Virus record (IMG/VR): IMGVR_UViG_3300025030_000337
Span: 1 to 29,951 of that record
Strand: one strand, 5' to 3'
Source of the DNA: a virus
DNA: 29,951 nucleotides
Shown: piece after piece, positions 2,999 to 28,912 of the stretch
How the letters are laid out: each line of letters begins with the position of its first letter
Numbering within the stretch: the stretch's first letter is position 1
Notes under the pieces: generated by a model
Database searches by the model: none
Told to the model about the DNA's origin: nothing
The model's input: only the letters and a program-made list of their open reading frames with translations
Position numbers and translations under genes: made by a program

Positions 2999-3671
2999 AT
3001 GAATAAAGTTAGATTAGAAATAAGGGCTGCCGAGGGCGGTTTAGACGCAAAACTTCTTGTGAAACTTCAAAGTGAAATCTACGAAAGGTTTTGTGCTCGG
3101 AGGAGGCTTTGATTATCAAATCGTAGAGGAACGGAGCGGATTTATCGTCGCTCAAATTTCGGGACAAAATGCTTACAATGTTCTCAAAAATGAAATTGGC
3201 GGATTAAGATTTCAAAGAGTTTCGCCGACCGAAAAAAACGGACGCATTCATACATCAACAATAACCATTGCCGTTTTTGAAGAAAGTGGAAATAATAACT
3301 TATTCCAGTTAAACCTAGAAGAGTTTGAAGAAAGTGCCTATAAAGGTTCTGGTAAGGGTGGGCAAAAAAGAAATAAAAAAATGTCTGCCGTGAGGCTTAT
3401 TCATAAACCCACAGGAATTTCTGTTTGTGTTGAGAGCGGCCGAAATTATCATCAAAACAGAGAAACCGCCTGGACAGAAATGGAAAGAAGATTAAAGAAT
3501 ATTCATATTCAAAATGAGCAATTGAAAGAAGCAAAAAACAGAAAAAATCAGGTCGGGTCAGGAATGCGCGGAGACAAAAGAAGAACAATTGCCATTCAAA
3601 GAGATGAAGTGATTGACCATATTGGCGGCTGGCGAATAAGTTTTAAAAAATATAGGAATGGAGAATGGTAA
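2999..3671 (+). CDS. Domain-1-less peptide chain release factor expressed through a +1 frameshift (RF2-like control)
   Basis: Frame 0 starts at ATG 2999 after a textbook AAGGAG site (2987-2992, six-base spacer). It encodes 37 residues opening with VRLEIRAAEGGLDA, the start of release-factor domain 2 (LEIRAGTGGDEA in RF1), then meets TGA at 3110-3112. The +1 frame resumes at GAT 3111 and continues to TAA at 3671, giving about 223 residues in total. The downstream part has the codon-recognition loop QRVSPTEKNGRIHTS, with an SPT tripeptide where RF1 has PAT and RF2 has SPF. It also has the catalytic GKGGQKRNKK (GGQ at about residues 120-122) and the domain-4 segment VGSGMRGDKRRTIAI. Domain 1 is absent, as in PrfH, but the recognition loop is of RF1/RF2 kind. 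The frameshift site suggests that the protein ends translation at UGA and controls its own level. Confidence 0.85.
3099..3112 (+). promoter_or_regulatory. Programmed +1 frameshift signal (GGAGGAGG-CTT-TGA)
   Basis: The bases read CGG AGG AGG CTT TGA. The slippery CTT followed by TGA matches the prfB frameshift site of bacteria (AGGGGG-TAT-CTT-TGA-C). The Shine-Dalgarno-like GGAGG at 3099-3103 lies three bases before CTT, the same spacing as in Escherichia coli prfB, and a second AGGAGG abuts the CTT. The base after TGA is T rather than the usual C. Slippage of the CTT-decoding tRNA onto TTT joins the two halves of the release factor exactly. Confidence 0.8.
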
Positions 3672-5266: not shown

Positions 5267-5445
5267 GAAAGGGAGATTTAGTTTCTTATACAAGTCTCAG
5301 AAGAGAATATATAAAATGTGTTGTTTTATATTCGAATAAAAAATATTTTTCTTTATTTCTCATAAATTGTTTAACAATTTTAACGCTTAAATCAAATTTA
5401 ATTCCAACATTTAAATTCCGTAACTTACGAAAGCATAAACAATGA
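5257..5445 (+). CDS. Small beta-rich protein 1 of a tandem family (SH3-like by pattern)
   Basis: This 62-residue protein begins VLRKGDLVSYTSLRREYIKCVVLYS. That is the kGxxv...kxivL pattern of small SH3-like barrels and the first of six such genes in a row. It starts inside the last codons of the TIM-barrel gene and ends in ATGA overlapping the next gene. It is the most divergent member and has a basic C-terminus. Function is unknown; in phages such proteins are often accessory and fast-evolving. Confidence 0.55.
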   Translation: MVLRKGDLVSYTSLRREYIKCVVLYSNKKYFSLFLINCLTILTLKSNLIPTFKFRNLRKHKQ

Positions 5446-5651
5446 CATTAGATTTTCAATCAGTTGAGGTTGGAAAAATTTATAGAGTAAAAGTATCAGA
5501 TGGAATACGCCACATTTTAATTTTAAAAAAATTTAAAAACGAACATGGGTTCAACTGTTTTAATTTTTTAAATTTAACAAAAAACAAAATAATAATGAAT
5601 TATTCAGCCAAAACTTTATTAAACGATTTTAAACTTTCAGGGATAAAATGA
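5442..5651 (+). CDS. Small beta-rich protein 2 of the tandem family
   Basis: A 69-residue protein with the family pattern. SVEVGKIYRVKVSDGIRHILILKKF is followed by NFLNLTKNKIIMNYSAKTL. The NLTKNKII segment recurs in members 3 and 5, and FSxxxL/YSAKTL recurs after it. It is linked by ATGA overlaps on both sides (5442-5445 and 5648-5651), so this is a translationally coupled row of paralogues. Function is not known. Confidence 0.6.
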   Translation: MTLDFQSVEVGKIYRVKVSDGIRHILILKKFKNEHGFNCFNFLNLTKNKIIMNYSAKTLLNDFKLSGIK

Positions 5652-5842
5652 TCAACCTTAAAGGAAAATTAGGAAAAATTTCTTTTGAAGATGGGACCAA
5701 TAGAATTTTATTATTTTTAAATTCGTATTTTGATGACGAAAATAATGAAATTGTGAATTTTATGAATTTAACCAAAAATATAGTAATTAAAGATTTTTCT
5801 CTTGATAAACTTTATAAAGAATGGAAATTGAGAATTCTTTAA
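5648..5842 (+). CDS. Small beta-rich protein 3 of the tandem family
   Basis: A 64-residue protein closest to member 2. It reads LKGKLGKISFEDGTNRILLFLNSYFDDE, then VNFMNLTKNIVIKDFSLDKLYKEWKL, and the NLTKN core is the same. Its stop is directly followed by the ATG of member 4. The close likeness to its neighbour suggests fairly recent duplication. Confidence 0.6.
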   Translation: MINLKGKLGKISFEDGTNRILLFLNSYFDDENNEIVNFMNLTKNIVIKDFSLDKLYKEWKLRIL

Positions 5843-6058
5843 ATGATCGATTTAAAAGAAATAAAAAAGGGATCGATTTTAAAATTCAAAAATTCTATGG
5901 GTTCCTATTTTAATGGAGTTTTTATAATTACGAAAATTTATTTTGATATTTATAAAGATCTTAATTTTGATATTTTCACTTTGAAACACCAAAAGACTAT
6001 AATTGGGTTCAGGGCAAAAAACTGGATTGAATCTTGCATTAATGAATTAAAAAAATGA
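5843..6058 (+). CDS. Small beta-rich protein 4 of the tandem family
   Basis: A 71-residue protein that reads IDLKEIKKGSILKFKNSMGSYFNGVFIITKIY, then TIIGFRAKNWIESCI. The opening IxxIKxGxIxK is shared with members 5 and 6. It ends in ATGA overlapping member 5. No catalytic or metal-binding residues are evident. Confidence 0.6.
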   Translation: MIDLKEIKKGSILKFKNSMGSYFNGVFIITKIYFDIYKDLNFDIFTLKHQKTIIGFRAKNWIESCINELKK

Positions 6059-6285
6059 TTGAAATTAATAAAATCAAACCAGGAACGATTATTAAAGCGA
6101 CAATGACGGGGCAACCTAATAAATTAATAGTTTTAAAAGTTTATCAACATCCACAATTTTATAATGACCAACACTATCTTCGTTTTGATTATTTAAATAT
6201 TTCTAAAAACAAAATAATAATAAGCGCTTCCGTTTTGGGCTTCTCCTGCGGAGAAGACATAGAAGAAATTTATTGTAGAGAATAA
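6055..6285 (+). CDS. Small beta-rich protein 5 of the tandem family
   Basis: A 76-residue protein that reads IEINKIKPGTIIKATMTGQPNKLIVLKVY, then NISKNKIIISASVLGFSCGEDIEEIY. Members 5 and 6 are near-copies at the N-terminus (IxxIKPGTIxKAxxxxxNKxIVLKVY). The C-terminal SCGE motif matches the end of the protein at 1578-2045. Only two bases separate it from member 6. Confidence 0.6.
   Translation: MIEINKIKPGTIIKATMTGQPNKLIVLKVYQHPQFYNDQHYLRFDYLNISKNKIIISASVLGFSCGEDIEEIYCRE
6241..6255 (+). repeat. Perfect hairpin TTCTCC-TGC-GGAGAA near a gene end
   Basis: This is the partner of the hairpin at 1983-1997: the same core and loop, in the same position relative to the SCGE peptide. It supports common descent of the C-terminal parts of the two genes. 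Confidence 0.5.
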
Positions 6286-6287
6286 AA

Positions 6288-6524
6288 ATGATTGATATAG
6301 AAAAAATAAAACCTGGAACAATTATGAAAGCAAAAATTCCGAAACTTAATAAAATAATAGTTTTAAAAGTTTATAACAACGCTATGGGGAGAAAGGAGTT
6401 ATTTCATTATTTCGTTCTTGGAGAAAACAGAATAATAAAGGGCGCCTGTGTTCAGGGTTTTGCTAATGGCTGGGACGTGGAAGAAATTTTTTCAAAATGT
6501 GAAATAAGGAAAGTCAAAAAATGA
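6288..6524 (+). CDS. Small beta-rich protein 6 of the tandem family
   Basis: A 78-residue protein that reads IDIEKIKPGTIMKAKIPKLNKIIVLKVY, then ENRIIKGACVQGFANGWDVEEIF. It is very similar to member 5 over the first 30 residues and at the GxxxEEIxx end. It ends in ATGA overlapping the next gene. Conservation of the fold-forming positions while the loops vary suggests real selection rather than decay. Confidence 0.6.
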   Translation: MIDIEKIKPGTIMKAKIPKLNKIIVLKVYNNAMGRKELFHYFVLGENRIIKGACVQGFANGWDVEEIFSKCEIRKVKK

Positions 6525-6896: not shown

Positions 6897-7280
6897 ATGG
6901 GAAAAGCCAAAAAGAAAAAATTAAGAGCAGATTTAGAACTTCATCTAACAATGACCGAACTTATTCATTTAAGAGATTTAATGTCAGTTTTGCTTCCGCC
7001 CGATGGATCAATGACAATTTCAAAATCCCTCGCGGAAATTGAAGACAGAGAACTTCAAGAAGGAAGATTATATGAAAAAATATATTCTTTATGTTCCGAA
7101 AACGGAATTCCGGCCGGAGAAACTGCCCCAGACTACTATTTAAATTTTAGTGTCAAACCAAGTTTTCATGTCCTTCCTTTAAATTTTAAAGAAGAAGTAG
7201 AAGAAGAGGATATTGAAGAAGATCTTGACGGAAGCGAACTTGACGACGAAGAAGAAGAAAAAAAGGAAAAATTAAAATGA
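6897..7280 (+). CDS. Hypothetical protein with acidic tail
   Basis: A 127-residue protein with a basic start (MGKAKKKKLRADLE), a helical middle (MTELIHLRDLMSVLLPPDGS) and a strongly acidic C-terminal 35 residues (EEVEEEDIEEDLDGSELDDEEEE). Charged tails of this kind are common in phage-encoded binding proteins and DNA mimics, but nothing identifies this one. It ends in ATGA, overlapping the short gene at 7277. Confidence 0.6.
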   Translation: MGKAKKKKLRADLELHLTMTELIHLRDLMSVLLPPDGSMTISKSLAEIEDRELQEGRLYEKIYSLCSENGIPAGETAPDYYLNFSVKPSFHVLPLNFKEEVEEEDIEEDLDGSELDDEEEEKKEKLK

Positions 7281-7378
7281 AGCTGCATCAATTATCATTA
7301 TATAAAGTATTTATGGAATTATATAATGATCTAAAACAAGGAGAAGCCAACTGCCATTTTTTAGAACCAAACAATTGA
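7277..7378 (+). pseudogene. Short gene start (MKLH...), possibly cut off by the IsrB element
   Basis: This 33-codon frame is coupled by ATGA to the gene before it and runs straight into the hairpin-rich region upstream of isrB, where it stops. Its start (MKLHQLSLYKVFMELY) resembles the start of the gene right after isrB at 8600 (MKLHESLLNKIVKLCE). One reading is a target gene cut by insertion. Another is simply two small paralogues on either side of the element. Confidence 0.4.
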
Positions 7379-7379
7379 T

Positions 7380-7565
7380 TAGACTACGAAACTTGAAAAC
7401 ATTTCCGTTTTCAAAAGTTCAAACTGAGCTTACTGGTCATGGCAGACCAAAAGATATGAAGAATGCCACCCTAGTTTTTCTTCCCTCTGTAAGTCAGTGT
7501 CGAAGGGTTGAATATATCGACAGGCTTTTGCCTGCCGACCTTAAAAGGAAATTAAAATAGAAAAA
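7380..7565 (+). ncRNA. Probable omega-RNA (guide RNA scaffold) of the IsrB system
   Basis: IscB/IsrB nucleases use an RNA encoded immediately 5' of the protein gene, and this interval has the right place and size. Four hairpins can be read: GAAAAC/GTTTTC (7395-7400 with 7407-7412, extended by AACTT/AAGTT), TGGTC/GACCA (7434-7438 with 7445-7449), ACCCT/AGGGT (7468-7472 with 7504-7508) and CAGGC/GCCTG around TTTT (7521-7534). A TTG-started frame of 61 codons spans the region but is probably chance. The guide would be the bases upstream of the scaffold, near 7360-7380; this boundary is inferred. Confidence 0.6.
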
Positions 7566-8603
7566 ATGTTCGTGCCTGTTGTAGATAAAAAAAATAAGCC
7601 TCTAATGCCGACAACTCCCGCAAGAGCTAAAAAGTGGATTAAAAGCAAAAAGGCAACGCCTTTTTGGAAGAAAGGGGTTTTTTGTGTTAGGTTAAATGTT
7701 GAGCCTTCGGCTCGGGAAAAGCAAAATATTGTTGTTGGAATTGATCCCGGATCGAAGAAAGAAGGATATTCTGTTAAAAGCAGACTTCATACCTATTTGA
7801 ACATCCAAGCGGATGCTGTTTGGTGGGTTAAAGATGCCGTGAAAACACGGCGGGAAATGAGGAGAACGAGAAGACAGAGGAAAACTCCTTATAGAAAATG
7901 TAGATATAACCGAAATAAAAATAAAAATTTTCTCACCCCCTCAACAAAAGCTCGGTGGCTGTGGAAATTGAGAGTTGTTAATTGGATTTCCAAAATATTT
8001 CCAATTTCTTATATTATTGTTGAAGATATTAAGGCTGTTTCAAAAAAAGGACAAAAAAAATGGAATAAAATTTTTTCTCCACTCCAGTATGGAAAAAACT
8101 GGTTTTACGGCGAATTAAGAAAAAATTATAAACTTACTTTAAAACAAGGATACGAAACGAAAAAATTAAGAGATAAACTTGAGTTAAAAAAGTCCTCGCA
8201 AAAACTCTCAAATAAATTTGAGGCGCATTGTATTGATAGTTGGGTTTTAGCGAACGAAGTTGTTGGAGGACATATTGAACCAGACAATAAAGAGATTTTA
8301 TTCATTGTTCCGTTGAGGTTTCACAGAAGACAATTACATTATTTAAGGCCAGGTAAAAATGGCGATAGAAAATTTTATGGCGGAACAAGAAGTCTTGGAC
8401 TTAAAAGGGGTTCTTTAATTAAACATAAAAAATATGGGCTGTGCTATGTCGGCGGAACATCAAAAGGTAGGGTTTCTTTGTGCGATATAAAAACAGGGAA
8501 AAGATTAACTCAATTAGCAAAGATTGAAAATTGTAAATTTGTTTCCTATAATAGTTTTAGAAGTGTCAAATTAAATTTTGTTAAAGAGGAGAAAAAAGCA
8601 TGA
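7566..8603 (+). CDS. isrB: IsrB: RNA-guided RuvC nickase of the IscB family, HNH absent
   Basis: A 345-residue protein, typical of IsrB. The N-terminal PLMP motif is at residues 12-15. RuvC-I is VVGIDPGSKKEGYSV (D60). The arginine-rich bridge helix is RREMRRTRRQRKTPYRKCR (about 95-113). RuvC-II is YIIVEDIKAVS (E153), and RuvC-III is EAHCIDSWVLAN (H221, D224). Only about 68 residues separate RuvC-II from RuvC-III, too few for an HNH domain, so this is IsrB rather than IscB and should nick one strand. The C-terminal RRQLHYLRPGKNG...GGTRSLGLKRGSLIKHKKYG...YVGGTSKGR region matches the target-interacting part of the family. All RuvC acids are present. No TnpA transposase is nearby, so it may act as a homing or regulatory nuclease in the phage. 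It ends in ATGA with the next gene. Confidence 0.88.
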   Translation: MFVPVVDKKNKPLMPTTPARAKKWIKSKKATPFWKKGVFCVRLNVEPSAREKQNIVVGIDPGSKKEGYSVKSRLHTYLNIQADAVWWVKDAVKTRREMRRTRRQRKTPYRKCRYNRNKNKNFLTPSTKARWLWKLRVVNWISKIFPISYIIVEDIKAVSKKGQKKWNKIFSPLQYGKNWFYGELRKNYKLTLKQGYETKKLRDKLELKKSSQKLSNKFEAHCIDSWVLANEVVGGHIEPDNKEILFIVPLRFHRRQLHYLRPGKNGDRKFYGGTRSLGLKRGSLIKHKKYGLCYVGGTSKGRVSLCDIKTGKRLTQLAKIENCKFVSYNSFRSVKLNFVKEEKKA

Positions 8604-8791
8604 AATTGCACGAAAGTTTATTGAATAAAATTGTTAAATTATGCGAAAATTATCAGGGATCTGACGGGAATGTTAAACTTAAAAACAAACTTGCCGAACT
8701 TGATTTATCGCCATATAAACAACAAAGCACCAACAAGGAAGTCTTGGTTTTAACCGAGGAACTTTTAGAGAAGACAAGAAAAAATAAATAA
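8600..8791 (+). CDS. Small hypothetical protein after isrB
   Basis: A 63-residue, mostly helical, charged protein overlapping the isrB stop by four bases. It starts MKLHESLLNKIVKLCENYQG, similar to the cut-off frame at 7277. No known domain. Confidence 0.5.
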   Translation: MKLHESLLNKIVKLCENYQGSDGNVKLKNKLAELDLSPYKQQSTNKEVLVLTEELLEKTRKNK

Positions 8792-9501: not shown

Positions 9502-11121
9502 ATGTCTCAAAAACTTTATGATGAAAACCTCCGTTTTAAAGAAGACGCCTTAACCGAAATTCTTGCCGGCGTAGAAATCCTCAATAACGCCGTTTCTCCC
9601 ACAATAGGCCCCAAGGGTCGTTGTGTTCTCATTGAAAACAGAGACGCTTATCCAACTTTGACCAAGGATGGCGTTTCTATTGCCAAACGCGTAAATTTAA
9701 AAGATAAATTCAAACGCATAGGTTGTGATGTCGTTAAAAGCGCCAGCGAAAAAACTCTCTCTTGTGTTGGCGACGGAACGAGCACCACAATTCTTTTATC
9801 TTATATTATTCTAAAAGAAAGCATCAAATTAAGAAATTCAGGTTTCAGTCCAACCGATTTAAAAAAAGGAATTGACCAAGCAACAGAAGAAATTGTTGAG
9901 AATTTAAAATCTCTGGCCAAACCACTTAACGATCTTAAAGAAATTGAGCAAGTTGCGACAATTTCAGCCAACAATGACAAAGAAATTGGAAAATTATTAA
10001 CAGAAGCCATAAATCACGCTGGAACAGACGGAATTGTAATGATTGATAAATCAAATTCCTTTAAAAGTTTTCTTGAAACCATTGAAGGAATGAGGTTTGA
10101 TAGGGGTTATATTTCTCCATATTTTATTAATAATCAAAACAAGGGCGTTTCCGAACTTAAAGAACCTTATATTTTCATTTCGACGAAAAAATTAAAATTT
10201 CTTGAAGATGTTCTTCCTCTTCTTGAAAAAGTTGCTCGCGCAAATAAACCAATTCTTTTTATTGCCGAAGAAGCCGAAGGTCAATTTTTACATACCCTTA
10301 TAACAAATACATTAAAAGGCGCTCTTCAATCTTGCGCAATTTTGGCGCCGGGGCTTGGAGAACATAAACTTCATCTTCTTGAAGATATTGCCACTTTAAC
10401 GGGCGGAGAATTAATAACAGATGGTTCTGGGCACTCTATTCAAAAATTAGAACTTTCCTCTCTTGGGAAATGCGAAAAAATTCTTGTCGGAAGATATGAT
10501 ACAACAATTGTTGGCGGAAAAGGTAATAAAGAAAAAATCAACGAAAGAATTGAAGCAATAAGAAAACAACTTCTCGATCCAACATTATTAGAGCAGGATA
10601 AAGCAATTTTAAAAGATAGGCTCGCCAAATTAAGTGGAGGAATTTCTCTTGTTCGCGTAGGCGGGAATACAGAAGCCGAAATGAATGAAAGATATGATCG
10701 AGTTGATGATGCTTTACACGCTTGTCAAGCAGGGTTAGCAGAAGGAATAGTTCCTGGAGGCGGTGTAGCCCTCGTGAGAGCCTCGCAAAAAATTTTTATA
10801 GATCCAGAAGGCAACCGAGCAATTCAGGCAGGCAGGGAAGTTGTTAAAAATGCTTGCCTTTCGCTTCTTAAAAAAATCGTTGAAAACGAAGGAACATTGG
10901 TTCCAGAAGTTGTTCTAAATAAAGTTTTAGAACTTCCTGAAAATGAAGGGTTCGACGCTTATTCAAATTCATATGTGAATATGATTGAAAAAGGTATTAT
11001 TGACCCAGTTTTAGCAACAAGAACCGCTCTTCAAAACGCTTCGTCCGTGGCGTCTTTATTGCTTGTTGTTGATGCCATTATTGCCGAAGACGAAAAGTTG
11101 CCGGCCCAAAAAGATTTTTAA
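9502..11121 (+). CDS. groEL: Phage-encoded chaperonin GroEL (Hsp60)
   Basis: A 539-residue, full-length group I chaperonin. Visible signatures are TIGPKGR and TKDGVSIAK in the first equatorial part, the nucleotide-binding GDGTSTT, the apical YISPYFINNQ, and LSGGISLVRVGGNTEAEMNERYDRVDDALHA with the catalytic aspartate. GIVPGGGVAL in the second equatorial part follows. The C-terminal GGM-rich tail of bacterial GroEL is missing. It should fold proteins by ATP-driven encapsulation. Jumbo phages such as Pseudomonas EL and OBP carry comparable chaperonins that can work without a separate co-chaperonin. No groES gene is visible in the window. It has its own promoter, so expression is probably independent of the genes before it. 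Confidence 0.95.
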   Translation: MSQKLYDENLRFKEDALTEILAGVEILNNAVSPTIGPKGRCVLIENRDAYPTLTKDGVSIAKRVNLKDKFKRIGCDVVKSASEKTLSCVGDGTSTTILLSYIILKESIKLRNSGFSPTDLKKGIDQATEEIVENLKSLAKPLNDLKEIEQVATISANNDKEIGKLLTEAINHAGTDGIVMIDKSNSFKSFLETIEGMRFDRGYISPYFINNQNKGVSELKEPYIFISTKKLKFLEDVLPLLEKVARANKPILFIAEEAEGQFLHTLITNTLKGALQSCAILAPGLGEHKLHLLEDIATLTGGELITDGSGHSIQKLELSSLGKCEKILVGRYDTTIVGGKGNKEKINERIEAIRKQLLDPTLLEQDKAILKDRLAKLSGGISLVRVGGNTEAEMNERYDRVDDALHACQAGLAEGIVPGGGVALVRASQKIFIDPEGNRAIQAGREVVKNACLSLLKKIVENEGTLVPEVVLNKVLELPENEGFDAYSNSYVNMIEKGIIDPVLATRTALQNASSVASLLLVVDAIIAEDEKLPAQKDF

Positions 11122-11898: not shown

Positions 11899-13512
11899 GT
11901 GATAAAAAGAACAATATTACTTTTCCTTATCGCAATTTTATGTTTATTTGTATTATCTATAATATCTTGCGAAGACAGCGGAATAGGAAATGCTTGTGTC
12001 GCAGAAACTTGTGATGGAATTGATAATAATTGTGATGGACAAATTGATGAAAATATTAAAAGAGAATGCTGGACTGGCGGATTAATTCAAAATTTAAGCG
12101 AAACTTCACAATGTAAAAAAGGACTTCAAAGATGTGAAAACGGAACTTGGCTTAACGAATGCCTAGAACAAGTTCTCCCCTCTAAAGAAATTTGCGACGG
12201 AATAGATAATGATTGCGACGGACAAACAGATGAAGAAACATTTAAAAATTGTGGTCCGCCAAACCAAGATGGTGTTTGTAAAAAAGGAAATACTGTTTGC
12301 CAAAATAGTGAAGCAATTTGCGAAGAAGCAATATTTCCATCTCCAGAAATTTGCGACGGATTAGATAATGATTGCGATGGGCAAACTGACAATGGATTAT
12401 TTAGGCCATGTTCTTCCGTTTGCGAAAATGGACTAGAAAGATGTATTAATGGAATTTGGACCGATTGTTCCGCTAGAAATCCCGCAAAAGAAATATGTAA
12501 TGACGCTGACGATAATTGCGATGGGGTAATAGATGAAAACTGCCCCTGTTCTGTTGATGAAGCAAGAGTTTGCCGACAAAATATTGTAGATGACAATGGA
12601 AACCAAATCAATTGTGGTTTTGGAGTTTCTGTATGCAATGAATTTGGGGAATGGAGCATTTGCCGGTATGTTTCTTCAGAAGAAGAAAAATGTAATAATT
12701 GGGACGATGATTGCGACGAAGTAATTGACAACATACAAGAAACTTGCGGAGAAGATTATAAAGAAATTGGCGTTTGTAAGCACGGAACAAAAAGTTGTAT
12801 AAACGGAAATTGGACAGAGTGTCAAAATGCTGTTTTTCCATCCGAAGAAATTTGCGACGAACTTGATAATAATTGCGACGGAGAAGTTGATGAAAATTTA
12901 AACCCCAGAAACAAAGTTGATATGATATTTGCTATTGACATTTCAACATCAATGTGCCCAATTATAAACGCCGTCGTTCAAGGAATTCAAGGTTATATAA
13001 ATAGTTTTGTTGGTTCAAATCATAGATTTGGGCTGGTTATTTTTCCTGGCTATGGAACTCCAGGTTCTAACCCATACGATATTTTGACAAGTCCGCCGCT
13101 TACAGATCCACAAATATTTCTTTCTGCCGTAAATTCTGTTGCTTGTAATGGTTCAGGATTGGAACCGAGTTATGATGTTTTATATGATTTAGTTCATCCA
13201 TCAAATATATCAAATATAAACTGGAGAAGTGACGCATTTCCTTATATAATTTTAATAACAGATGAATTGGCACAAAGTTGGAATGGGTTAAATGAACAAA
13301 GTGTTTCATCTTTTACATCAAATTGTCAAATTGCTGGATGCCAAAACGGAGATAGCGTTGAAATATATATTATATCTGATGACTCTTTTTATTATATGTG
13401 GGACGAAATTCTTTTCTTTGAAAGAAATGATAGATTTTTAGATTATTTCCCGCCGGACACAGATAGATATTATGATTTTTTTACAAAAGTTTTCGCAGAT
13501 GTTTGCTTTTAA
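11899..13512 (+). CDS. Secreted lipoprotein with six MopE-type metal-binding repeats and a von Willebrand A domain
   Basis: A 537-residue protein from a GTG start. A hydrophobic signal ending LSIISC (residues 19-24) is a likely lipoprotein cleavage site. Six repeats of the MopE-type motif follow: CDGIDNNCDGQIDE, CDGIDNDCDGQTDE, CDGLDNDCDGQTDN, CNDADDNCDGVIDE, CNNWDDDCDEVID and CDELDNNCDGEVDE. They are spaced by CxxG..xCxNGxWxxC segments resembling small disulfide-linked modules. The C-terminal 200 residues form a von Willebrand A domain with a MIDAS DxSTS (D347, S349, S351). Such repeats bind Ca or Cu in surface proteins of environmental bacteria. In a phage, a lipoprotein like this could remodel the host surface, block superinfection, or be borrowed host material; none of these is shown by the sequence. 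Confidence 0.85.
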   Translation: MIKRTILLFLIAILCLFVLSIISCEDSGIGNACVAETCDGIDNNCDGQIDENIKRECWTGGLIQNLSETSQCKKGLQRCENGTWLNECLEQVLPSKEICDGIDNDCDGQTDEETFKNCGPPNQDGVCKKGNTVCQNSEAICEEAIFPSPEICDGLDNDCDGQTDNGLFRPCSSVCENGLERCINGIWTDCSARNPAKEICNDADDNCDGVIDENCPCSVDEARVCRQNIVDDNGNQINCGFGVSVCNEFGEWSICRYVSSEEEKCNNWDDDCDEVIDNIQETCGEDYKEIGVCKHGTKSCINGNWTECQNAVFPSEEICDELDNNCDGEVDENLNPRNKVDMIFAIDISTSMCPIINAVVQGIQGYINSFVGSNHRFGLVIFPGYGTPGSNPYDILTSPPLTDPQIFLSAVNSVACNGSGLEPSYDVLYDLVHPSNISNINWRSDAFPYIILITDELAQSWNGLNEQSVSSFTSNCQIAGCQNGDSVEIYIISDDSFYYMWDEILFFERNDRFLDYFPPDTDRYYDFFTKVFADVCF

Positions 13513-15657: not shown

Positions 15658-18600
15658 ATGAAATTTTTACATATTGGTGACGTGCACTTTAAGTTGGAAA
15701 ATTATAAGTTATCACAATATAAACAATGTTTTGAATGGTTGTTTGATTATATTATCAAAGAAAAAATTGATTACACTTTAATTTGCGGAGATATATGTCA
15801 TCTGTATAATCAAATTAATATTCCACTTGTTGAAAACTTGTTTTGGTTTTTTAAAGAATTGTCAAAACTAACACAAGTTTTTCTAATTGGAGGAAACCAC
15901 GATCGTGTCTTGTCTGACTTAAATAAAAAAAGCATTATTGAAGTTGTAATAGAAGAATTAAATAATTCAAACATTAAACTTTTTCAACAAACACAAAATT
16001 TCTCATTAACAGAAAAAATAAATATCATTCCTTTTCCACTTGAAGATAAAAATAACTGGTCAAATATTAAAGTTGATAATTCAAAAATTAACATAGGGCT
16101 CGCCCACCAGTGTATAAAAAATTCTGTTTCAGATTTAGGATATATTCTTCCTGGAGAACTTGATACAGATTTCTTTAAAAATCTTGGAATAGATTTTTTA
16201 ATGGTCGCTGACATTCATTTTCGTCAAATATTAGCAACAAAAAAACACAAAAATGGAAAAGAATTACCTTGGGCAATGTATTGCGGTTCAACAATCGCCC
16301 AAAACTACGCCGAAGAACCAGAAAAAGGCGGTCTCATTTGGGAAATTAATGACAAAGACGACTGGAATGTTTATGGCTTCAATATTCCAAACCCAAACCC
16401 TTTCATAACATTAGATTGGCAAAAAGACGCCTCAACAACACTTAATCTTTCGAAATCATATCCACCAACTTCTTATTTCCGCATAAGACATAAGGAAGAA
16501 ATAACACACAAAGATAAAGAACAAGTTAAAACCGAATTAAAATCAGGCGGGGCAAAAGAAGTCGTTTTCAAATCAGAAGTAGAATTTGATTATTCAACAA
16601 TAAAAACAAAAACAATATCAACAACAAAATCCAATCTTTATGATTTTGAGACACAGGCAAAACTTCTTAAAGAATTCCTTAAAAACAAAAATCTATCAAA
16701 AGAAGATTTTGATTTTTTAAAATCTATTCTTAAATCGTATCTTCAAGAATTATCTAATTCAAATAAAACCTCAACGCCAAAATGGACATTAAAATCATTA
16801 AAATTTGAAAATCTATATGGCTATAAAGATAATAATTTTATAAATTTTGAAAATTTTTCTGGAATGACTGGCATCTTTGGGCGAAATCGTTCCGGAAAAT
16901 CTTCTATTCTTGGAATATTAACATTCGCATTATTTTCATCTTCCGACCGCGGAGCAATCAAAAATATTGATATTTTGAATAGAAGAAAAAACAAAGGTTT
17001 TGTTGAACTTAAAATTTGTGTGAATGGAAATGATTATATTATAAAAAGAGATATTGAAAAAAAGGTCGGCAAAAAGAAAACAACAAGTCTCTCTTCAATT
17101 TCTTTTAAGCACATTGATGAAAACGAAAATATAATTGAAGATTTTAATCATACATTAAAAAATAATGTTGAAGATAAAATAAAAGAACTTATTGGCACAA
17201 GAGAAGATTTTTTTATGACGGCATTCGCCCGTCAAGGAAAAATGAACGAATTTATTGAAGAGGGTTCAACAAAAAGAAAATCATATTTAAACAGATTTTT
17301 AGGGCTTCACATATTTGAGAGAATTTTTGACCTTGCCAAAAAAGATTTTGATGAAATAAATTCTCAATTTAAAAAAACAGAAGATAAAAATTGGGACAAC
17401 GAAATCAAAGAATTAAAAAATAAACTTCTGACAAATGAATTATCCGTAAAACAAAATAAATCTAAATTAGAAACTTTAAATAAAGAAAATTTTGAATTGG
17501 AATTAAAAATTAATTCGGCCGGGGGGAATAAAAAAATTTATTCAAAACAACAAATAGAAGAATATGAAGATAAAATTAAAGATTTAAACAATGAAATTGA
17601 TAAATTAGAAAAAATCATTAAAGATTTATCTCTTCAAAAAGAAGAGAAAGAAGCCTTCCTCGAAAAGATTGTGGAGGTTAAAAATAAATTCCCTCTGGAC
17701 ATAGTAAATGAAAAAATATCGCAACAGAGAGGCTTACAGGAAGTCCTGGCATCAATTAAAAACAAATATGAGATTGAACTATCAAAACTGGAACATCAAG
17801 AAAAATCTGTTTCAAAATTAAAAACAATTCCGTGCGGAGACACATTTCCAGAATGTCGTTTTATTAAAGATAGTTTTAAAGATAAATCAACAATAGAGAC
17901 ACAACGCGAAAAAGTTTTAAACTTTATTAAAGAAATTGATTTAATAAAAGAAAAAATTGACGCCTTAAAAGAAAAAAAATATGAAGAAAAGTTAAATAAA
18001 TTCAATGAATTAAATAAAAAAGAAAATGATTTATTGGTTAAAATTTCAAATTTAATAAACAAAATTCACGCGGAAGAAAAATCTTTATCTGGAATAAACT
18101 CTAATTTAGAGAATTTAACTAAAATTCTTGAAGAGGCAAAAAATAGCCAAGAAACAAACATATCTGACGAAAGCGAAAAACTTAATAAAATAAAAAATGA
18201 TATAAAAATAATAGAAAAAGAAACAGACACCTTTATTTGGGAAAACGGAAAATATGAAAATGAAATAAAACAAAAAGAAAAAAACAAAGAAGAATATAGT
18301 CTTTTAAAAAATAAATGGAACTTATTGAATATGTTTATTGACGCCGTCGGAAAAAAAGGAATTCCATTACAAATTTTATATTCACAAATTCCTATAATTA
18401 ATAAAGAGATTTCAAATTTGCTTTCCGAAAACATTCCTTTTAATATTGAATTAGAGGCCGATTTAGAATCTAACGATTTATCAATTTATATTGACGATGG
18501 CGAAAGCAAGGGAATTGTTGAAACTGCCTGCGGAATGGAAAAAATGTTTGCTTCATTAGTTTTAAGAACAGCATTATTAAAAGTTTCTTCTGGCGTTCCA

Positions 18601-18801
18601 AACCCAGATTTTTTAATAATTGACGAAGGGACGGATAATTTGGATGATGAAAATGTTGGAGAATTCTATAAATTATTTGATATTTTGAAAAAAAATTTTA
18701 AAAATGTTGTTGTAATAACGCATAATAAAAATATTAAATCTATTGCGGATAATATAATAGAAATTAAAAAAGAAAAAGGATATTCAAAAATCTTCCAATG
18801 A
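15658..18801 (+). CDS. Fused SbcD-SbcC (Mre11-Rad50; T4 gp47-gp46 type) recombination nuclease
   Basis: A 1047-residue protein that joins both subunits of the Mre11-Rad50 complex. The N-terminal calcineurin-like phosphoesterase has DVH (D8, H10), GD (D45), GNHD (80-82), GLAHQ and a later ADIHF. From about residue 375 the Rad50/SbcC ATPase follows, with Walker A GIFGRNRSGKSS (405-416) and a Q-loop region near TAFARQGKMNEF. Long coiled coils flank an apparent hook CGDTFPEC (C726, C733). The signature/Walker B region ends in FLIIDEGTDNLD (D989, E990), with H-loop ITHN. The complex resects DNA ends to start recombination. The hook cysteines are spaced CX6C instead of the usual CXXC. In T4 the two subunits are separate genes, so the fusion fixes their ratio at 1:1. 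Confidence 0.93.
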   Translation: MKFLHIGDVHFKLENYKLSQYKQCFEWLFDYIIKEKIDYTLICGDICHLYNQINIPLVENLFWFFKELSKLTQVFLIGGNHDRVLSDLNKKSIIEVVIEELNNSNIKLFQQTQNFSLTEKINIIPFPLEDKNNWSNIKVDNSKINIGLAHQCIKNSVSDLGYILPGELDTDFFKNLGIDFLMVADIHFRQILATKKHKNGKELPWAMYCGSTIAQNYAEEPEKGGLIWEINDKDDWNVYGFNIPNPNPFITLDWQKDASTTLNLSKSYPPTSYFRIRHKEEITHKDKEQVKTELKSGGAKEVVFKSEVEFDYSTIKTKTISTTKSNLYDFETQAKLLKEFLKNKNLSKEDFDFLKSILKSYLQELSNSNKTSTPKWTLKSLKFENLYGYKDNNFINFENFSGMTGIFGRNRSGKSSILGILTFALFSSSDRGAIKNIDILNRRKNKGFVELKICVNGNDYIIKRDIEKKVGKKKTTSLSSISFKHIDENENIIEDFNHTLKNNVEDKIKELIGTREDFFMTAFARQGKMNEFIEEGSTKRKSYLNRFLGLHIFERIFDLAKKDFDEINSQFKKTEDKNWDNEIKELKNKLLTNELSVKQNKSKLETLNKENFELELKINSAGGNKKIYSKQQIEEYEDKIKDLNNEIDKLEKIIKDLSLQKEEKEAFLEKIVEVKNKFPLDIVNEKISQQRGLQEVLASIKNKYEIELSKLEHQEKSVSKLKTIPCGDTFPECRFIKDSFKDKSTIETQREKVLNFIKEIDLIKEKIDALKEKKYEEKLNKFNELNKKENDLLVKISNLINKIHAEEKSLSGINSNLENLTKILEEAKNSQETNISDESEKLNKIKNDIKIIEKETDTFIWENGKYENEIKQKEKNKEEYSLLKNKWNLLNMFIDAVGKKGIPLQILYSQIPIINKEISNLLSENIPFNIELEADLESNDLSIYIDDGESKGIVETACGMEKMFASLVLRTALLKVSSGVPNPDFLIIDEGTDNLDDENVGEFYKLFDILKKNFKNVVVITHNKNIKSIADNIIEIKKEKGYSKIFQ

Positions 18802-22917: not shown

Positions 22918-25900
22918 ATGGCAAAACAGAATTTATTTAAAAAATTGGCTACGCTTTTTTCTGGCGGTAGAGCCATAACACGTAGACGTATAAGAAATTA
23001 TAATTTGGCGCCGTCTAATCCCGCCATGAATGCGTTTAAAACCTCGCAATCTTTTCTTTACGGCGGAATTATGAATTCTGCGTCGAGTTACGACAGAATT
23101 AACCGACATAATGACTTCCAAGAAATGGATTTAGATCCAATCATTCATTCCGCTCTTGATATATACGCAGAAGAAACCGTAAGTCCGGACGACAACGGAG
23201 ATATTATTCATATTTTTTCAGAAAATAGAAAAATTAAAGACATATTGGAATTTTTATTTTATGAAACTTTAAATGTTCAATTTTTTCTTTCTCCGTGGGT
23301 TAGATCTATGTGTAAGTTTGGAGATGTTTACCTTCTTTTGGATGTTCGTGATAAAATTGGTGTTTGCAATGTTTTCCCAATCCCTGTAAATGAAATTGAA
23401 AGAGAAGAAGGATTTGATCAAAATAATCCGGCGGCAGTAAGATTTAGGTGGCAAACAAACGGAAACAGACTTTTAGATGATTATGAGATTGCACATTTTC
23501 GTCTTTTGGGAGAAGATACATTTTTGCCGTACGGATCTTCAGTTTTGTCTGGGGCTCGAAGAATTTGGAGAATGGTTAAACATTTGGAAGATAATATGAT
23601 GCTGTACCGAGTGGTCAGGTCACCGGAACGTAGAGTTTTCTACATTGATACAGGCAACATTGCTCCCGAAAAAGTTCCTGATTATATGGAAGAAGTTAAA
23701 CGGACTATGACCACAAATCCAGTGGTAAACAAAAATAATGGAGAAATAGATTTAAGGCATAATGCTTTAACATCACTTCAAGATTATTACCTGCCAATTA
23801 AAGATGGCAGTCAAACTCGAATTGAAACTCTCGCGGGTGGTCGGCACGCCACCGATATTGACGATATTGAATATATGCAACGGCAATTGTTTGCAGCATT
23901 AAAAATTCCAAAAGCGTATTTGACTTACGAAGAAGAATTATGTCTTCACCCAGATACAAAAATTCCTCTTTTAGACGGACGAACAATAACGATAAAAGAA
24001 ATAGCGGAAGAATATGAAAATGAAAAACAAAATTGGGTTTATTCATCTGAACTTGACGGTTCTGTGAAGCCTGGAAAAATTTTATGGGCAGGAAAAACAA
24101 AAATTTGTAATAAATTACTTGAAATAACATTAGACAATAATGAGAAAATCCTCTGCACAGAAAATCACCCATTTTTATTACGAACTGGCAAATATAAACG
24201 AGCAGATGAACTTATTTGTAATGAAGGCATAATGCCTCTATACAGAAAACTATCAAATAAAAAAGAAAAAGATTTTGCCAATGGGTATGAGAAAATTCTA
24301 AACAATTCAACGAATAAATGGGTTTACACTCACAGAATGGTCGCAAATAATGAAAAAATTAATATTCACGAAAGTGCTGGAACATATATATATGACGTAA
24401 TTCATCATAATACATTTGATAAATTAAAAAATTACCCAGAACATTTAACTTTAATGAGTAATAGATATCATTTTCAATATCACGGAAAAATGGCATCAGA
24501 GCGCACCAAAAAATTTTGGGAAAACGACAATGGAAAATTAAGAAAAAAAATAGAAGAAATTAAAAAAACAGAGGAATATAGACAAAAAATTTCCAACGGG
24601 AATAAAAAAGCCTGGTCTAGAGATAATGGAAGCAGAAGAAAAAAACAATCTGAACTATTAACTGAACTCAATAAGAAATCTTGGGAAAATGACAACTATA
24701 GACAAAAAAAATTGAAAATTCTGAAAACAGATGAGCACAAACAAAAAGTTTCTATGGGGATAAGAAAATATTGGAATAATAATGATAATGAAAATAGAAA
24801 AAAGATGTCCGTGGGACAAAAAAAACAAGATAACCCAAACTGGAAACCAAGACCAAAGTTAGAAGATTTAATAGAATTAGTCAAAAAAGGAGTTTCGGAA
24901 AAATTTGAAGCTAGAGATATTTTAAATTGTTCCTTAAGCGGAATAGACGAAATTTTATTCTCTAATGAAATTGATGGTTGGTGTGATCTTATTTGTAAGT
25001 TTGGCAAAAGAAAAAAGGGGGGAAAAATAAAATCAATAGATTTAAATTATGCCTCGTCTATTTCAGCGACAAGCAAAAATAGATTGGATTTTTATAAAAA
25101 AATAGGTATATCAAAAAAAGGTTTTGGAAACTATTTTAAAAGAAACAATTTAAATCTATTTAAATGGTTTAAAGAAAATCTAAATAAAATTAACCATAAA
25201 ATTATATCAATAAAAACCATTATTTTATCGGAGCCAATTGAAGTTTATGATTTGACAATTGACAAATATAACAATTTCGCTCTTGATGCTGGAGTATTTG
25301 TCCATAATTCATCTAAAGCCGGATTAAGCCAACAAGATTTGCGTTTCAATCGCACAATTAACCATATTCAAAAAACCGTTATCTCCGAACTTAACAAAAT
25401 CGCCACAATCCATCTCGTTGCTCATGGTTTCGCTGACGAAGAAATTCTAAATTTTGACCTAAAACTTTCTAATCCTTCTGCTCTTGCCGAGCAACAAAAA
25501 CTTGAACTTCTCCGCTCCAAATTCGAAATCATCTCAACACCCGAACCTGGCTACTTCTCTCGCGACTGGCTTCGCAGAAAAGTTATGGGATTAACCCAAG
25601 AAGAAATTGAAGAAATTGATCGAGAACTTCGCCGCGACAAACTCTTTGAAGTTGAAATGGAAGATATTAATTTGCCCGGTGGGGAAGGTGGAGGAGGCGG
25701 AGGTTTTGGAGCGCCAGGGGGCGGTATAGGCGCCGAATTTGGCGACGATGATTTAGGTATGACCCCAACGTCCGATGAAACTGGAGGCGGATTAGAAGCC
25801 CCGGAGGGCGAATTAGGAGGCGATGAAGGAGAAGCAGAAAAGCCCGAGGAAGAAGAGGGAGAAGAAGATTTATTCGCTGGTGATGAAAAAGAAGTCGGCG

Positions 25901-26433
25901 GGAAGAAAAAATTATTGATGGCTTCTGACAATGATGAAGAAATCTTTCTTGACGAGGAAGACGAAGAAGAAAATAAAAAACAACTCAAATTATCTATTCA
26001 AGACGAAGATGCTCCAATTAAAGCAATGAACCAAATGCAGAGAGTTTTCCACAACAGAAATAGAAAACGACGACACGGGCCAAAAGCATTAGATATGCCA
26101 GATTTTAACAGCATGCTTTCTTATAAAAATAAATCTCATTCCGATCCATACGACAAAGAATTCTTAAAAAATCCAAATCGCGAAACATTTAAATTATCTG
26201 ACGGCAAAGTTTTGGGACTTTATTATGATAAAAAAATTGCCGAAAATGAAAAAATTGCCTCTAAAACTTTGACAATGCTTGATAATTTAAAAAAGAAATT
26301 AAAATTAGATAATAGAAAAATAATTATAACTGAAAATGAAGAAACCAAAAAAGAAGAAAAGGATTTAGAAGAAATTCTAAAAGAAAGCATTATTGCCGGC
26401 GGCGAAAATAATAATGATGACAACAACCAATAA
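22918..26433 (+). CDS. Portal vertex protein (T4 gp20 type) interrupted by an in-frame intein
   Basis: A precursor of 1171 residues. The N-extein (1-341) has the T4-like portal pattern (RIRNYNLAPSNPAM, DLDPIIHSALDIYAEE, VRSMCKFGDVYLLLD, IWRMVKHLEDNMMLYRVVRSPERRVFYID). The intein covers residues 342-797. The C-extein resumes SSKAGLSQQDLRFNRTI, so splicing restores a conserved portal segment (TYEEEL joined to SSKAG). Mature length would be about 715 residues. The C-terminus carries a Gly-rich stretch and a long acidic segment (about residues 920-1030) not usual in gp20, followed by MQRVFHNRNRKRRHG. The portal forms the ring through which DNA enters the head. The following gene overlaps its end by 20 bases. 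Confidence 0.92.
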   Translation: MAKQNLFKKLATLFSGGRAITRRRIRNYNLAPSNPAMNAFKTSQSFLYGGIMNSASSYDRINRHNDFQEMDLDPIIHSALDIYAEETVSPDDNGDIIHIFSENRKIKDILEFLFYETLNVQFFLSPWVRSMCKFGDVYLLLDVRDKIGVCNVFPIPVNEIEREEGFDQNNPAAVRFRWQTNGNRLLDDYEIAHFRLLGEDTFLPYGSSVLSGARRIWRMVKHLEDNMMLYRVVRSPERRVFYIDTGNIAPEKVPDYMEEVKRTMTTNPVVNKNNGEIDLRHNALTSLQDYYLPIKDGSQTRIETLAGGRHATDIDDIEYMQRQLFAALKIPKAYLTYEEELCLHPDTKIPLLDGRTITIKEIAEEYENEKQNWVYSSELDGSVKPGKILWAGKTKICNKLLEITLDNNEKILCTENHPFLLRTGKYKRADELICNEGIMPLYRKLSNKKEKDFANGYEKILNNSTNKWVYTHRMVANNEKINIHESAGTYIYDVIHHNTFDKLKNYPEHLTLMSNRYHFQYHGKMASERTKKFWENDNGKLRKKIEEIKKTEEYRQKISNGNKKAWSRDNGSRRKKQSELLTELNKKSWENDNYRQKKLKILKTDEHKQKVSMGIRKYWNNNDNENRKKMSVGQKKQDNPNWKPRPKLEDLIELVKKGVSEKFEARDILNCSLSGIDEILFSNEIDGWCDLICKFGKRKKGGKIKSIDLNYASSISATSKNRLDFYKKIGISKKGFGNYFKRNNLNLFKWFKENLNKINHKIISIKTIILSEPIEVYDLTIDKYNNFALDAGVFVHNSSKAGLSQQDLRFNRTINHIQKTVISELNKIATIHLVAHGFADEEILNFDLKLSNPSALAEQQKLELLRSKFEIISTPEPGYFSRDWLRRKVMGLTQEEIEEIDRELRRDKLFEVEMEDINLPGGEGGGGGGFGAPGGGIGAEFGDDDLGMTPTSDETGGGLEAPEGELGGDEGEAEKPEEEEGEEDLFAGDEKEVGGKKKLLMASDNDEEIFLDEEDEEENKKQLKLSIQDEDAPIKAMNQMQRVFHNRNRKRRHGPKALDMPDFNSMLSYKNKSHSDPYDKEFLKNPNRETFKLSDGKVLGLYYDKKIAENEKIASKTLTMLDNLKKKLKLDNRKIIITENEETKKEEKDLEEILKESIIAGGENNNDDNNQ
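23941..25308 (+). mobile_element. Intein with HNH homing endonuclease in the portal gene
   Basis: A 456-residue insertion. It begins with C (CLHPDTKIPLLDGRTITIKEI, block A), has a block B TENHPF (about intein residue 73) and ends GVFVHN followed by Ser (+1), the standard splice residues. Near intein residues 130-181 is an HNH nuclease (HRMVANNEKINIHESAG...YDVIHHNTFDKLKNYPEHL...SNRYHFQYH). Four or so repeats containing KKxWxxDNxxxRKK follow (NUMOD3-like DNA-binding units), then a helix-turn-helix-like region. It should splice itself out and spread to intein-free portal genes. All key residues (C1, the block B histidine, the final HN, and S+1) are present, so it looks active. Confidence 0.92.
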
Positions 26434-28690: not shown

Positions 28691-28912
28691 TTATTTTCTA
28701 TTTATAATTTTGCAATATGGAAGATTTTTTCTTGTTAAAATAATAGTGTCAAATGGTTTTGATTTAGTTTTTCCGCCAACTTTAATAACCTTAATAAAAT
28801 TTGCTTTTGAAGATAATACCAAAAAATAATGATGTTCTCCAGAACAACCGTCACTTGCTGGATCGAACTTTATCAAATCACCAACTTTAATTTCGGCTAA
28901 TGAGTTAATCAT
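28691..28912 (-). CDS. Small beta-rich protein (minus strand; SH3-like by pattern)
   Basis: A 73-residue protein: INSLAEIKVGDLIKFDPASD, then HHYFLVLSSKANFIKVI. It shows the I+xGDLIKF...xLVLSS pattern of the small-barrel genes elsewhere in the window. It lies between the DnaJ-type gene and an unknown gene in the same operon. Confidence 0.6.
   Translation of the reverse strand: MINSLAEIKVGDLIKFDPASDGCSGEHHYFLVLSSKANFIKVIKVGGKTKSKPFDTIILTRKNLPYCKIINRK

What the first reader, a model, noticed from the sequence alone, without database searches (positions are those of the whole stretch)
7377..8603. Solitary IsrB with a candidate omega-RNA in a phage genome
All RuvC acids, the PLMP motif, the bridge helix and the target-interacting end are intact, HNH is missing, and a four-hairpin region of the right size precedes the gene. 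No TnpA is nearby, which suggests that the nickase has been kept for phage purposes such as homing, exclusion of rival phages or control of a target gene.
Basis: partly seen in the sequence, partly recalled or inferred. Interest (0 to 1): 0.75.

Follow-up and report, generated by a model that had tools for sequence, protein, structure and literature searches.

The report
Phage IsrB nickase with guide RNA
A phage genome fragment carries a complete, intact RNA-guided DNA nickase of the known IsrB kind together with its guide RNA; the guide is copied from the phage's own DNA beside the gene, so the enzyme most likely cuts relatives that lack it and so spreads or keeps itself, which is interesting but belongs to a known family already seen in phages.

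Summary
The protein claim is right: 7566-8603 encodes an intact 345-aa IsrB (best solved match DtIsrB, E 3e-35; RuvC D60/E153/H221/D224, PLMP, arginine-rich bridge helix, and TAM-reading R313/Q316 all present; no HNH). The RNA claim is right, but misplaced. A covariance model built from 40 relatives, without the window, hits 7287-7543 at E 2.6e-25. The scaffold therefore starts at 7287, not about 7360, and the guide is 7267-7286 (AAAAATTAAAATGAAGCTGC), not 7355-7380. Forty-one pairs, including both pseudoknots, covary across 57 sequences (0/500 shuffles reach the observed values). In cellular relatives a natural empty site shows the rule: guide directly followed by ATGA, the TAM. Here ATGA at 8600-8603 is at once TAM, isrB stop and start of the next gene, so the element-bearing allele is not a target but an element-free one would be. 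Being solitary is normal for this family and does not by itself show domestication. However, this copy has lost the right-end hairpin, has a non-standard left hairpin, matches phage codon usage, and sits among long-diverged viral IsrBs. Best reading: a phage-resident, RNA-guided homing nickase; homing itself is inferred. New member of a known kind.

The parts
7267..7286 (+). predicted 20-nt guide AAAAATTAAAATGAAGCTGC (outside the scaffold; end of the 127-aa gene and its downstream RBS/ATG)
   Evidence: the 20 nt left of scaffold position 1 set by the covariance hit; 20-nt guide rule from DtIsrB (PMC9581776); only copy in the window at up to 3 mismatches
7287..7565 (+). omega-RNA scaffold (covariance hit 7287-7543; the rest up to the start codon is linker)
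   Evidence: R1, built without the window, 97.8 bits, E 2.6e-25, full model
7287..7293 (+). stem S1, 5' strand ATCAATT, pairs with 7373-7379
   Evidence: covariation in A5; GC to AT change on both sides in the window
7294..7330 (+). stem-loop SL1, 12-bp AT-rich hairpin in place of the family's CCCC/GGGGCTTG hairpin
7346..7349 (+). adaptor pseudoknot, 5' side GCCA, pairs with 7440-7443 TGGC
   Evidence: 96.9% of cells paired, G-C/A-U exchange in 22 sequences
7373..7379 (+). stem S1, 3' strand AATTGAT
7428..7494 (+). branched core helix with two stem-loops (7434-7449 and 7452-7488)
   Evidence: 22 covarying pairs; one window mismatch at 7457/7481
7469..7472 (+). nexus pseudoknot CCCT, pairs with 7504-7507 AGGG
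7517..7538 (+). 3' hairpin next to the isrB ribosome-binding region (SL7-like position)
   Evidence: fold; position by analogy with DtIsrB (PMC9581776)
7566..8603 (+). isrB, 345 aa, RNA-guided nickase
7743..7745 (+). RuvC-I Asp60
   Evidence: invariant in A6, aligned to DtIsrB
8022..8024 (+). RuvC-II Glu153
   Evidence: invariant
8226..8237 (+). RuvC-III His221 ... Asp224
   Evidence: invariant
8502..8513 (+). TAM-reading Arg313 and Gln316 (GKRxxQ), counterparts of DtIsrB R323/Q326
   Evidence: alignment and residue roles in PMC9581776
8586..8591 (+). GAGGAG, ribosome-binding site of the next gene inside the isrB 3' end
   Evidence: sequence
8600..8603 (+). ATGA: predicted TAM, isrB stop (TGA) and start (ATG) of gene 8600-8791
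   Evidence: family empty site has guide|ATGA

Best explanation
A solitary, phage-resident IsrB OMEGA element working as an RNA-guided homing (self-retention) nickase. The upstream transcript 7267 to about 7565 carries a guide copied from the flank at the insertion point plus a scaffold that IsrB binds. The complex recognises guide-matching DNA followed by an NTGA TAM (here ATGA). In the element-bearing genome the guide match is followed by ATCA (scaffold start), so it is not cut. In an element-free relative the guide match would abut ATGA, and the non-target strand would be nicked there. Repair or replication-fork recombination with an element-bearing genome in a mixed infection would then copy the element in. 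Shown: intact protein, structured and covarying RNA, guide/TAM geometry in the family and here. Inferred: transcription, nicking, and homing in the cell.
For: Protein. RNA: independent model hit E 2.6e-25; 35/41 pairs with double changes, 93.3% paired, 0/500 shuffles, slid controls 33-45%. Element rule: copies at different sites begin to match at GTCA, the right flank begins ATGA, and a natural empty site reads ...ATCACA|ATGAATAG. TAM residues R/Q are kept. Self-protection: 7287-7290 is ATCA, not NTGA. Residence rather than fresh transposon: right-end hairpin absent (-3.2 kcal/mol, weaker than all 78 cellular copies), GC3 0.28 and codon usage as phage genes, viral IsrBs cluster (7 changes against 24.8 shuffled).
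Against: No element-free relative of this phage was found, so the window's own empty site is predicted, not seen. A nick is a weaker homing trigger than a double-strand break. Near-identical IsrBs at different sites in other viral contigs (L100/L106, L109/L110) show that related elements still move, so plain transposition cannot be excluded. The tree is sampled around viral queries and its window branch is long and unsupported. No transcript data.
Confidence: 0.58

Rival explanations
1. An ordinary non-autonomous IS200/IS605-type passenger: an IsrB element moved into the phage by a host Y1 TnpA acting in trans; the nickase only helps the transposon to survive excision and it has no phage role.
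For: Direct precedent: a Microcystis IsrB gene with 207 bp upstream and 59 bp downstream inserted into phage Mic1 at ATGA (PMC11237433). Many viral copies keep canonical left hairpins and right-end hairpins inside the isrB 3' end. Near-identical copies at different sites.
Against: The window copy lacks the right-end hairpin and has a non-canonical left hairpin; long diverged branch among viral IsrBs; phage-like codon usage.
Confidence: 0.28
2. A domesticated effector whose guide now targets something else: a rival phage, a host locus, or a gene to be silenced or nicked.
For: Intact nuclease and RNA with reduced transposon ends; phage genomes use other guide-based weapons (general knowledge).
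Against: The guide still equals the left flank in the family-standard place. The only exact 18-nt match in 2.9 million viral contigs is in a coding gene without TAM (CAAC), as expected by chance. Viral guides are all different, and their 14-nt seeds match only other contigs of the same phage or the TAM-less L253.
Confidence: 0.09
3. A decaying, inactive remnant.
For: Loss of the right-end hairpin; one mismatched RNA pair (7457/7481).
Against: Open frame of full length, all catalytic and TAM residues, and 26 of 27 consensus RNA pairs plus both pseudoknots kept.
Confidence: 0.05

Closest known systems
DtIsrB and the IsrB family (PDB 8dmb; PMC9581776)
   Same: about 350 aa, PLMP-RuvC-bridge helix-TI without HNH; 20-nt guide plus about 260-nt scaffold with S1/SL1, adaptor and nexus pseudoknots; R and Q reading an NTGA TAM
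   Different: 28% identity to DtIsrB; phage-borne; SL1 is an AT-rich hairpin; activity untested
IsrB elements of cyanobacteria, Chloroflexota and Poribacteria (loci L006-L085 here)
   Same: 50-64% protein identity, same RNA model, guide | element | ATGA arrangement
   Different: those keep canonical GTCA-CCCC/GGGGCTTG left ends and a right-end hairpin beyond the gene; the window copy does not
Viral IsrBs: K2IsrB (viral metagenome, PMC9581776), the Mic1 insertion (PMC11237433), IMG/VR loci L001 and L086-L116, 485-kb phage LR745208
   Same: IsrB with upstream RNA in phage or viral contigs
   Different: other insertion sites and guides; most keep recognisable transposon ends
Phage free-standing homing endonucleases and TnpB-driven IS gene drive (PMC11870625)
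   Same: target is the element-free allele; the element-bearing allele is protected by the insertion itself
   Different: RNA-guided, nicks one strand; homing not shown for IsrB

Membership tests
IsrB (OMEGA nickase) | PLMP, split RuvC with all acids, arginine-rich bridge helix | tested here: met
IsrB (OMEGA nickase) | no HNH domain, about 350 aa | tested here: met
   345 aa; about 70 residues between RuvC-II and RuvC-III; aligns to 8dmb without an insert
IsrB (OMEGA nickase) | upstream structured omega-RNA of about 260 nt scaffold with adaptor and nexus pseudoknots | tested here: met
IsrB (OMEGA nickase) | guide equals left flank; TAM on the right side | tested here: met
   position shown here and by an empty site in a relative; function not tested
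IsrB (OMEGA nickase) | RNA-guided nicking of the non-target strand | not testable with these tools
   needs biochemistry
IscB / HEARO | HNH domain and RF02033 RNA | tested here: not met
   NCBIfam IscB below cut-off, 109 against 175 bits; no Rfam hit
Autonomous IS200/IS605 transposon | Y1 transposase TnpA | tested here: not met
   none in the 29,951-base record; the record may be a fragment of the phage
Mobile IsrB element | canonical left and right end hairpins | tested here: not met
   left hairpin present but non-canonical, right hairpin absent
Homing endonuclease | cuts the element-free allele and is copied into it | not tested
   geometry fits; no element-free relative found

The most novel reading that the evidence does not exclude
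Some phages carry IsrB as a true RNA-programmed free-standing homing gene: the transposon ends are shed, isrB is fused into the phage operon (its stop is the next gene's start, with that gene's ribosome-binding site in its 3' end), and only guide, scaffold, nickase and TAM remain, so it spreads by nick-induced recombination among co-infecting phages instead of transposition.
Probability: 0.35. Interest if true: 0.62.

Novelty: new member of a known kind. Interest (0 to 1): 0.4.

Why it matters
If the homing reading holds, a programmable nickase, whose guide is rewritten by wherever it lands, does in phages what protein homing endonucleases do, and whether a nick is enough to drive homing becomes directly testable with a defined guide and target. 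Even if it is only a stranded element, it gives a corrected omega-RNA map for viral IsrBs and a covariance model for an RNA that Rfam does not hold.

Tried and rejected
'RNA region is an unknown coding ORF' (7375-7560): rejected, covariation of paired columns and slid controls. Off-site target: an 18-nt exact scan of viral contigs gave one match without TAM. Duplication ATGAAGCTGC (7277) / ATGAAATTGC (8600), suggesting a disrupted gene start: 11/15 identical, but a match this good is reached by 26% of random region pairs, so not significant. Loss of the right-end hairpin as a general trait of phage copies: rejected, many keep it inside the isrB 3' end. Searches for relatives of the phage by neighbour genes, GroEL, terminase, next-gene start and nucleotide similarity gave no close relative; an attempt to get phage presence/absence from the L001 neighbour found only L001's own contig. 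Rfam at E up to 10 gave only chance hits.

Full report
What is there. The window is a complete IMG/VR virus record of 29,951 bases from a T4-like phage (portal PF07230). The ORF at 7566-8603 encodes 345 aa with the RRXRR domain (4e-37). NCBIfam's IscB model matches below its cut-off (109 against 175 bits). Against solved structures the best hit is DtIsrB, 8dmb: phmmer E 3e-35 and a 20-sequence profile E 1e-57. The predicted fold (mean pLDDT 77.5) matches 8dmb first (3.4e-26). D60, E153, H221 and D224 are invariant among 20 relatives. DtIsrB reads its TAM with R323 and Q326 (PMC9581776), which I place in its GKRIGQ stretch from their spacing; the window has GKRLTQ, R313 and Q316 (alignment). 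An NTGA TAM is therefore expected.

The RNA. Eighty cellular and 33 viral loci with relatives were fetched. Their upstream regions align although they lie outside the gene. RNAalifold on 40 of them, without the window, gives 27 pairs, 22 with compensatory changes. The covariance model from that alignment hits window 7287-7543 over its whole length at 97.8 bits, E 2.6e-25. On 57 aligned sequences a structure of 41 pairs, adding stem S1 and the two pseudoknots known from DtIsrB, is 93.3% paired. Thirty-five pairs change on both sides; none of 500 shuffles reaches the observed values and structures slid by 1-3 columns drop to 33-45%. That alignment was fitted to the core model but not to S1 or the pseudoknots. 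The window keeps all of these pairs but one (7457/7481). Its S1 (ATCAATT/AATTGAT) and SL1 (12 AT-rich pairs) have different bases from the family consensus but keep the pairing.

The guide and the TAM. Copies of the element in different cyanobacterial sites start to match exactly at GTCA, the first scaffold bases, and stop about 1,075-1,110 bases past the start codon. Beyond the right end most continue with ATGA. Joining the flanks of one Microcoleus element finds a natural empty site in another cyanobacterium, contiguous across the junction ...ATCACA|ATGAATAG at 85% identity. So the family rule is guide | element | ATGA. In the window this gives guide 7267-7286 and TAM 8600-8603. The bases after the guide in the occupied allele are ATCA, not NTGA, so the phage's own copy should be spared.

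Phage features. The TGA stop of isrB lies in the ATGA start of the next gene, and GAGGAG (8586-8591) inside the isrB end can serve that gene. Viral copies abut the next start more often than cellular ones: 17 of 24 within 10 nt against 16 of 78, Fisher p 1e-5. That is partly because phage genomes are compact, and many viral copies still keep the right-end hairpin inside the reading frame. The window copy does not: its best hairpin there is -3.2 kcal/mol, weaker than all 78 cellular copies. isrB has the GC, GC3 and codon usage of the phage genes. In a quick tree viral rows cluster (7 label changes against 24.8 for shuffles), with the caution that sampling started from viral queries and that the window's branch is long and unsupported. 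No Y1 transposase is in the record, and only 3 of 35 IsrB-bearing viral records have one.

Mechanism. Shown: intact protein, RNA and family geometry. Following from established work on IsrB: an RNA-guided nick of the non-target strand at guide + NTGA. Inferred: in mixed infection, nicking of element-free genomes favours copying of the element, that is, homing or at least retention. The main rival is a plain transposon passenger, for which there is a documented case: a Microcystis IsrB gene with 207 bp upstream and 59 bp downstream inserted at ATGA into phage Mic1 (PMC11237433). The lost right end argues against continued transposition of this particular copy. Nothing supports a guide aimed elsewhere: the single exact match in viral contigs lacks a TAM, and the seeds of other viral guides match only further contigs of the same phages.

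Novelty. IsrB in viral sequences is known (K2IsrB was assayed, PMC9581776; over 16% of HEARO/IscB fragments were viral or prophage, PMC9755519; Mic1). Solitary genes are the norm. This is a new member of a known kind, with a possible new variant (end-less, operon-fused, homing) not excluded. No close relative of this phage was found, so the decisive empty-site comparison for the window itself is missing.

Noticed in passing
22918-26433: T4-like portal protein interrupted by an intein (PF14890, residues 349-797, about 450 aa), a second homing-type element in the same fragment.
   Followed up: partly
3072-3671: Phage-encoded release-factor-like protein (PCRF end plus RF-1 domain with GGQ), 199 aa.
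   Followed up: partly
15658-18801: By eye, an Mre11/SbcD-like nuclease fused to a Rad50/SbcC-like ATPase in one 1047-aa ORF.
   Followed up: no
9502-11121: Phage GroEL-like chaperonin, at most 40% identical to those of other viral contigs.
   Followed up: no
5442-6524: Tandem small ORFs of 64-78 aa sharing an MI-[DE]-x-x-KIKxGTI-like start, apparently a local paralogous family; similar small ORF at 28691-28912.
   Followed up: no
11899-13512: Secreted-looking protein with four MopE metal-binding repeats (PF11617).
   Followed up: partly
7277-7378: 33-aa ORF MKLHQLSLYKVF... over guide and SL1; the next gene (8600) also begins MKLHES. The DNA similarity is not significant.
   Followed up: yes
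L097 (record G014): A 485-kb phage with IsrB also has six TnpB-like (PF07282) matches: an unusual load of RNA-guided elements in one phage.
   Followed up: no
L100/L106 and L109/L110: Closely similar IsrB elements (92% and 85% identical DNA) at different sites in different viral contigs: mobility between viruses.
   Followed up: partly
all viral IsrB loci: Guides differ between all distinct viral elements and often hold a Shine-Dalgarno-like stretch, i.e. insertion just before an ATGA gene start.
   Followed up: partly
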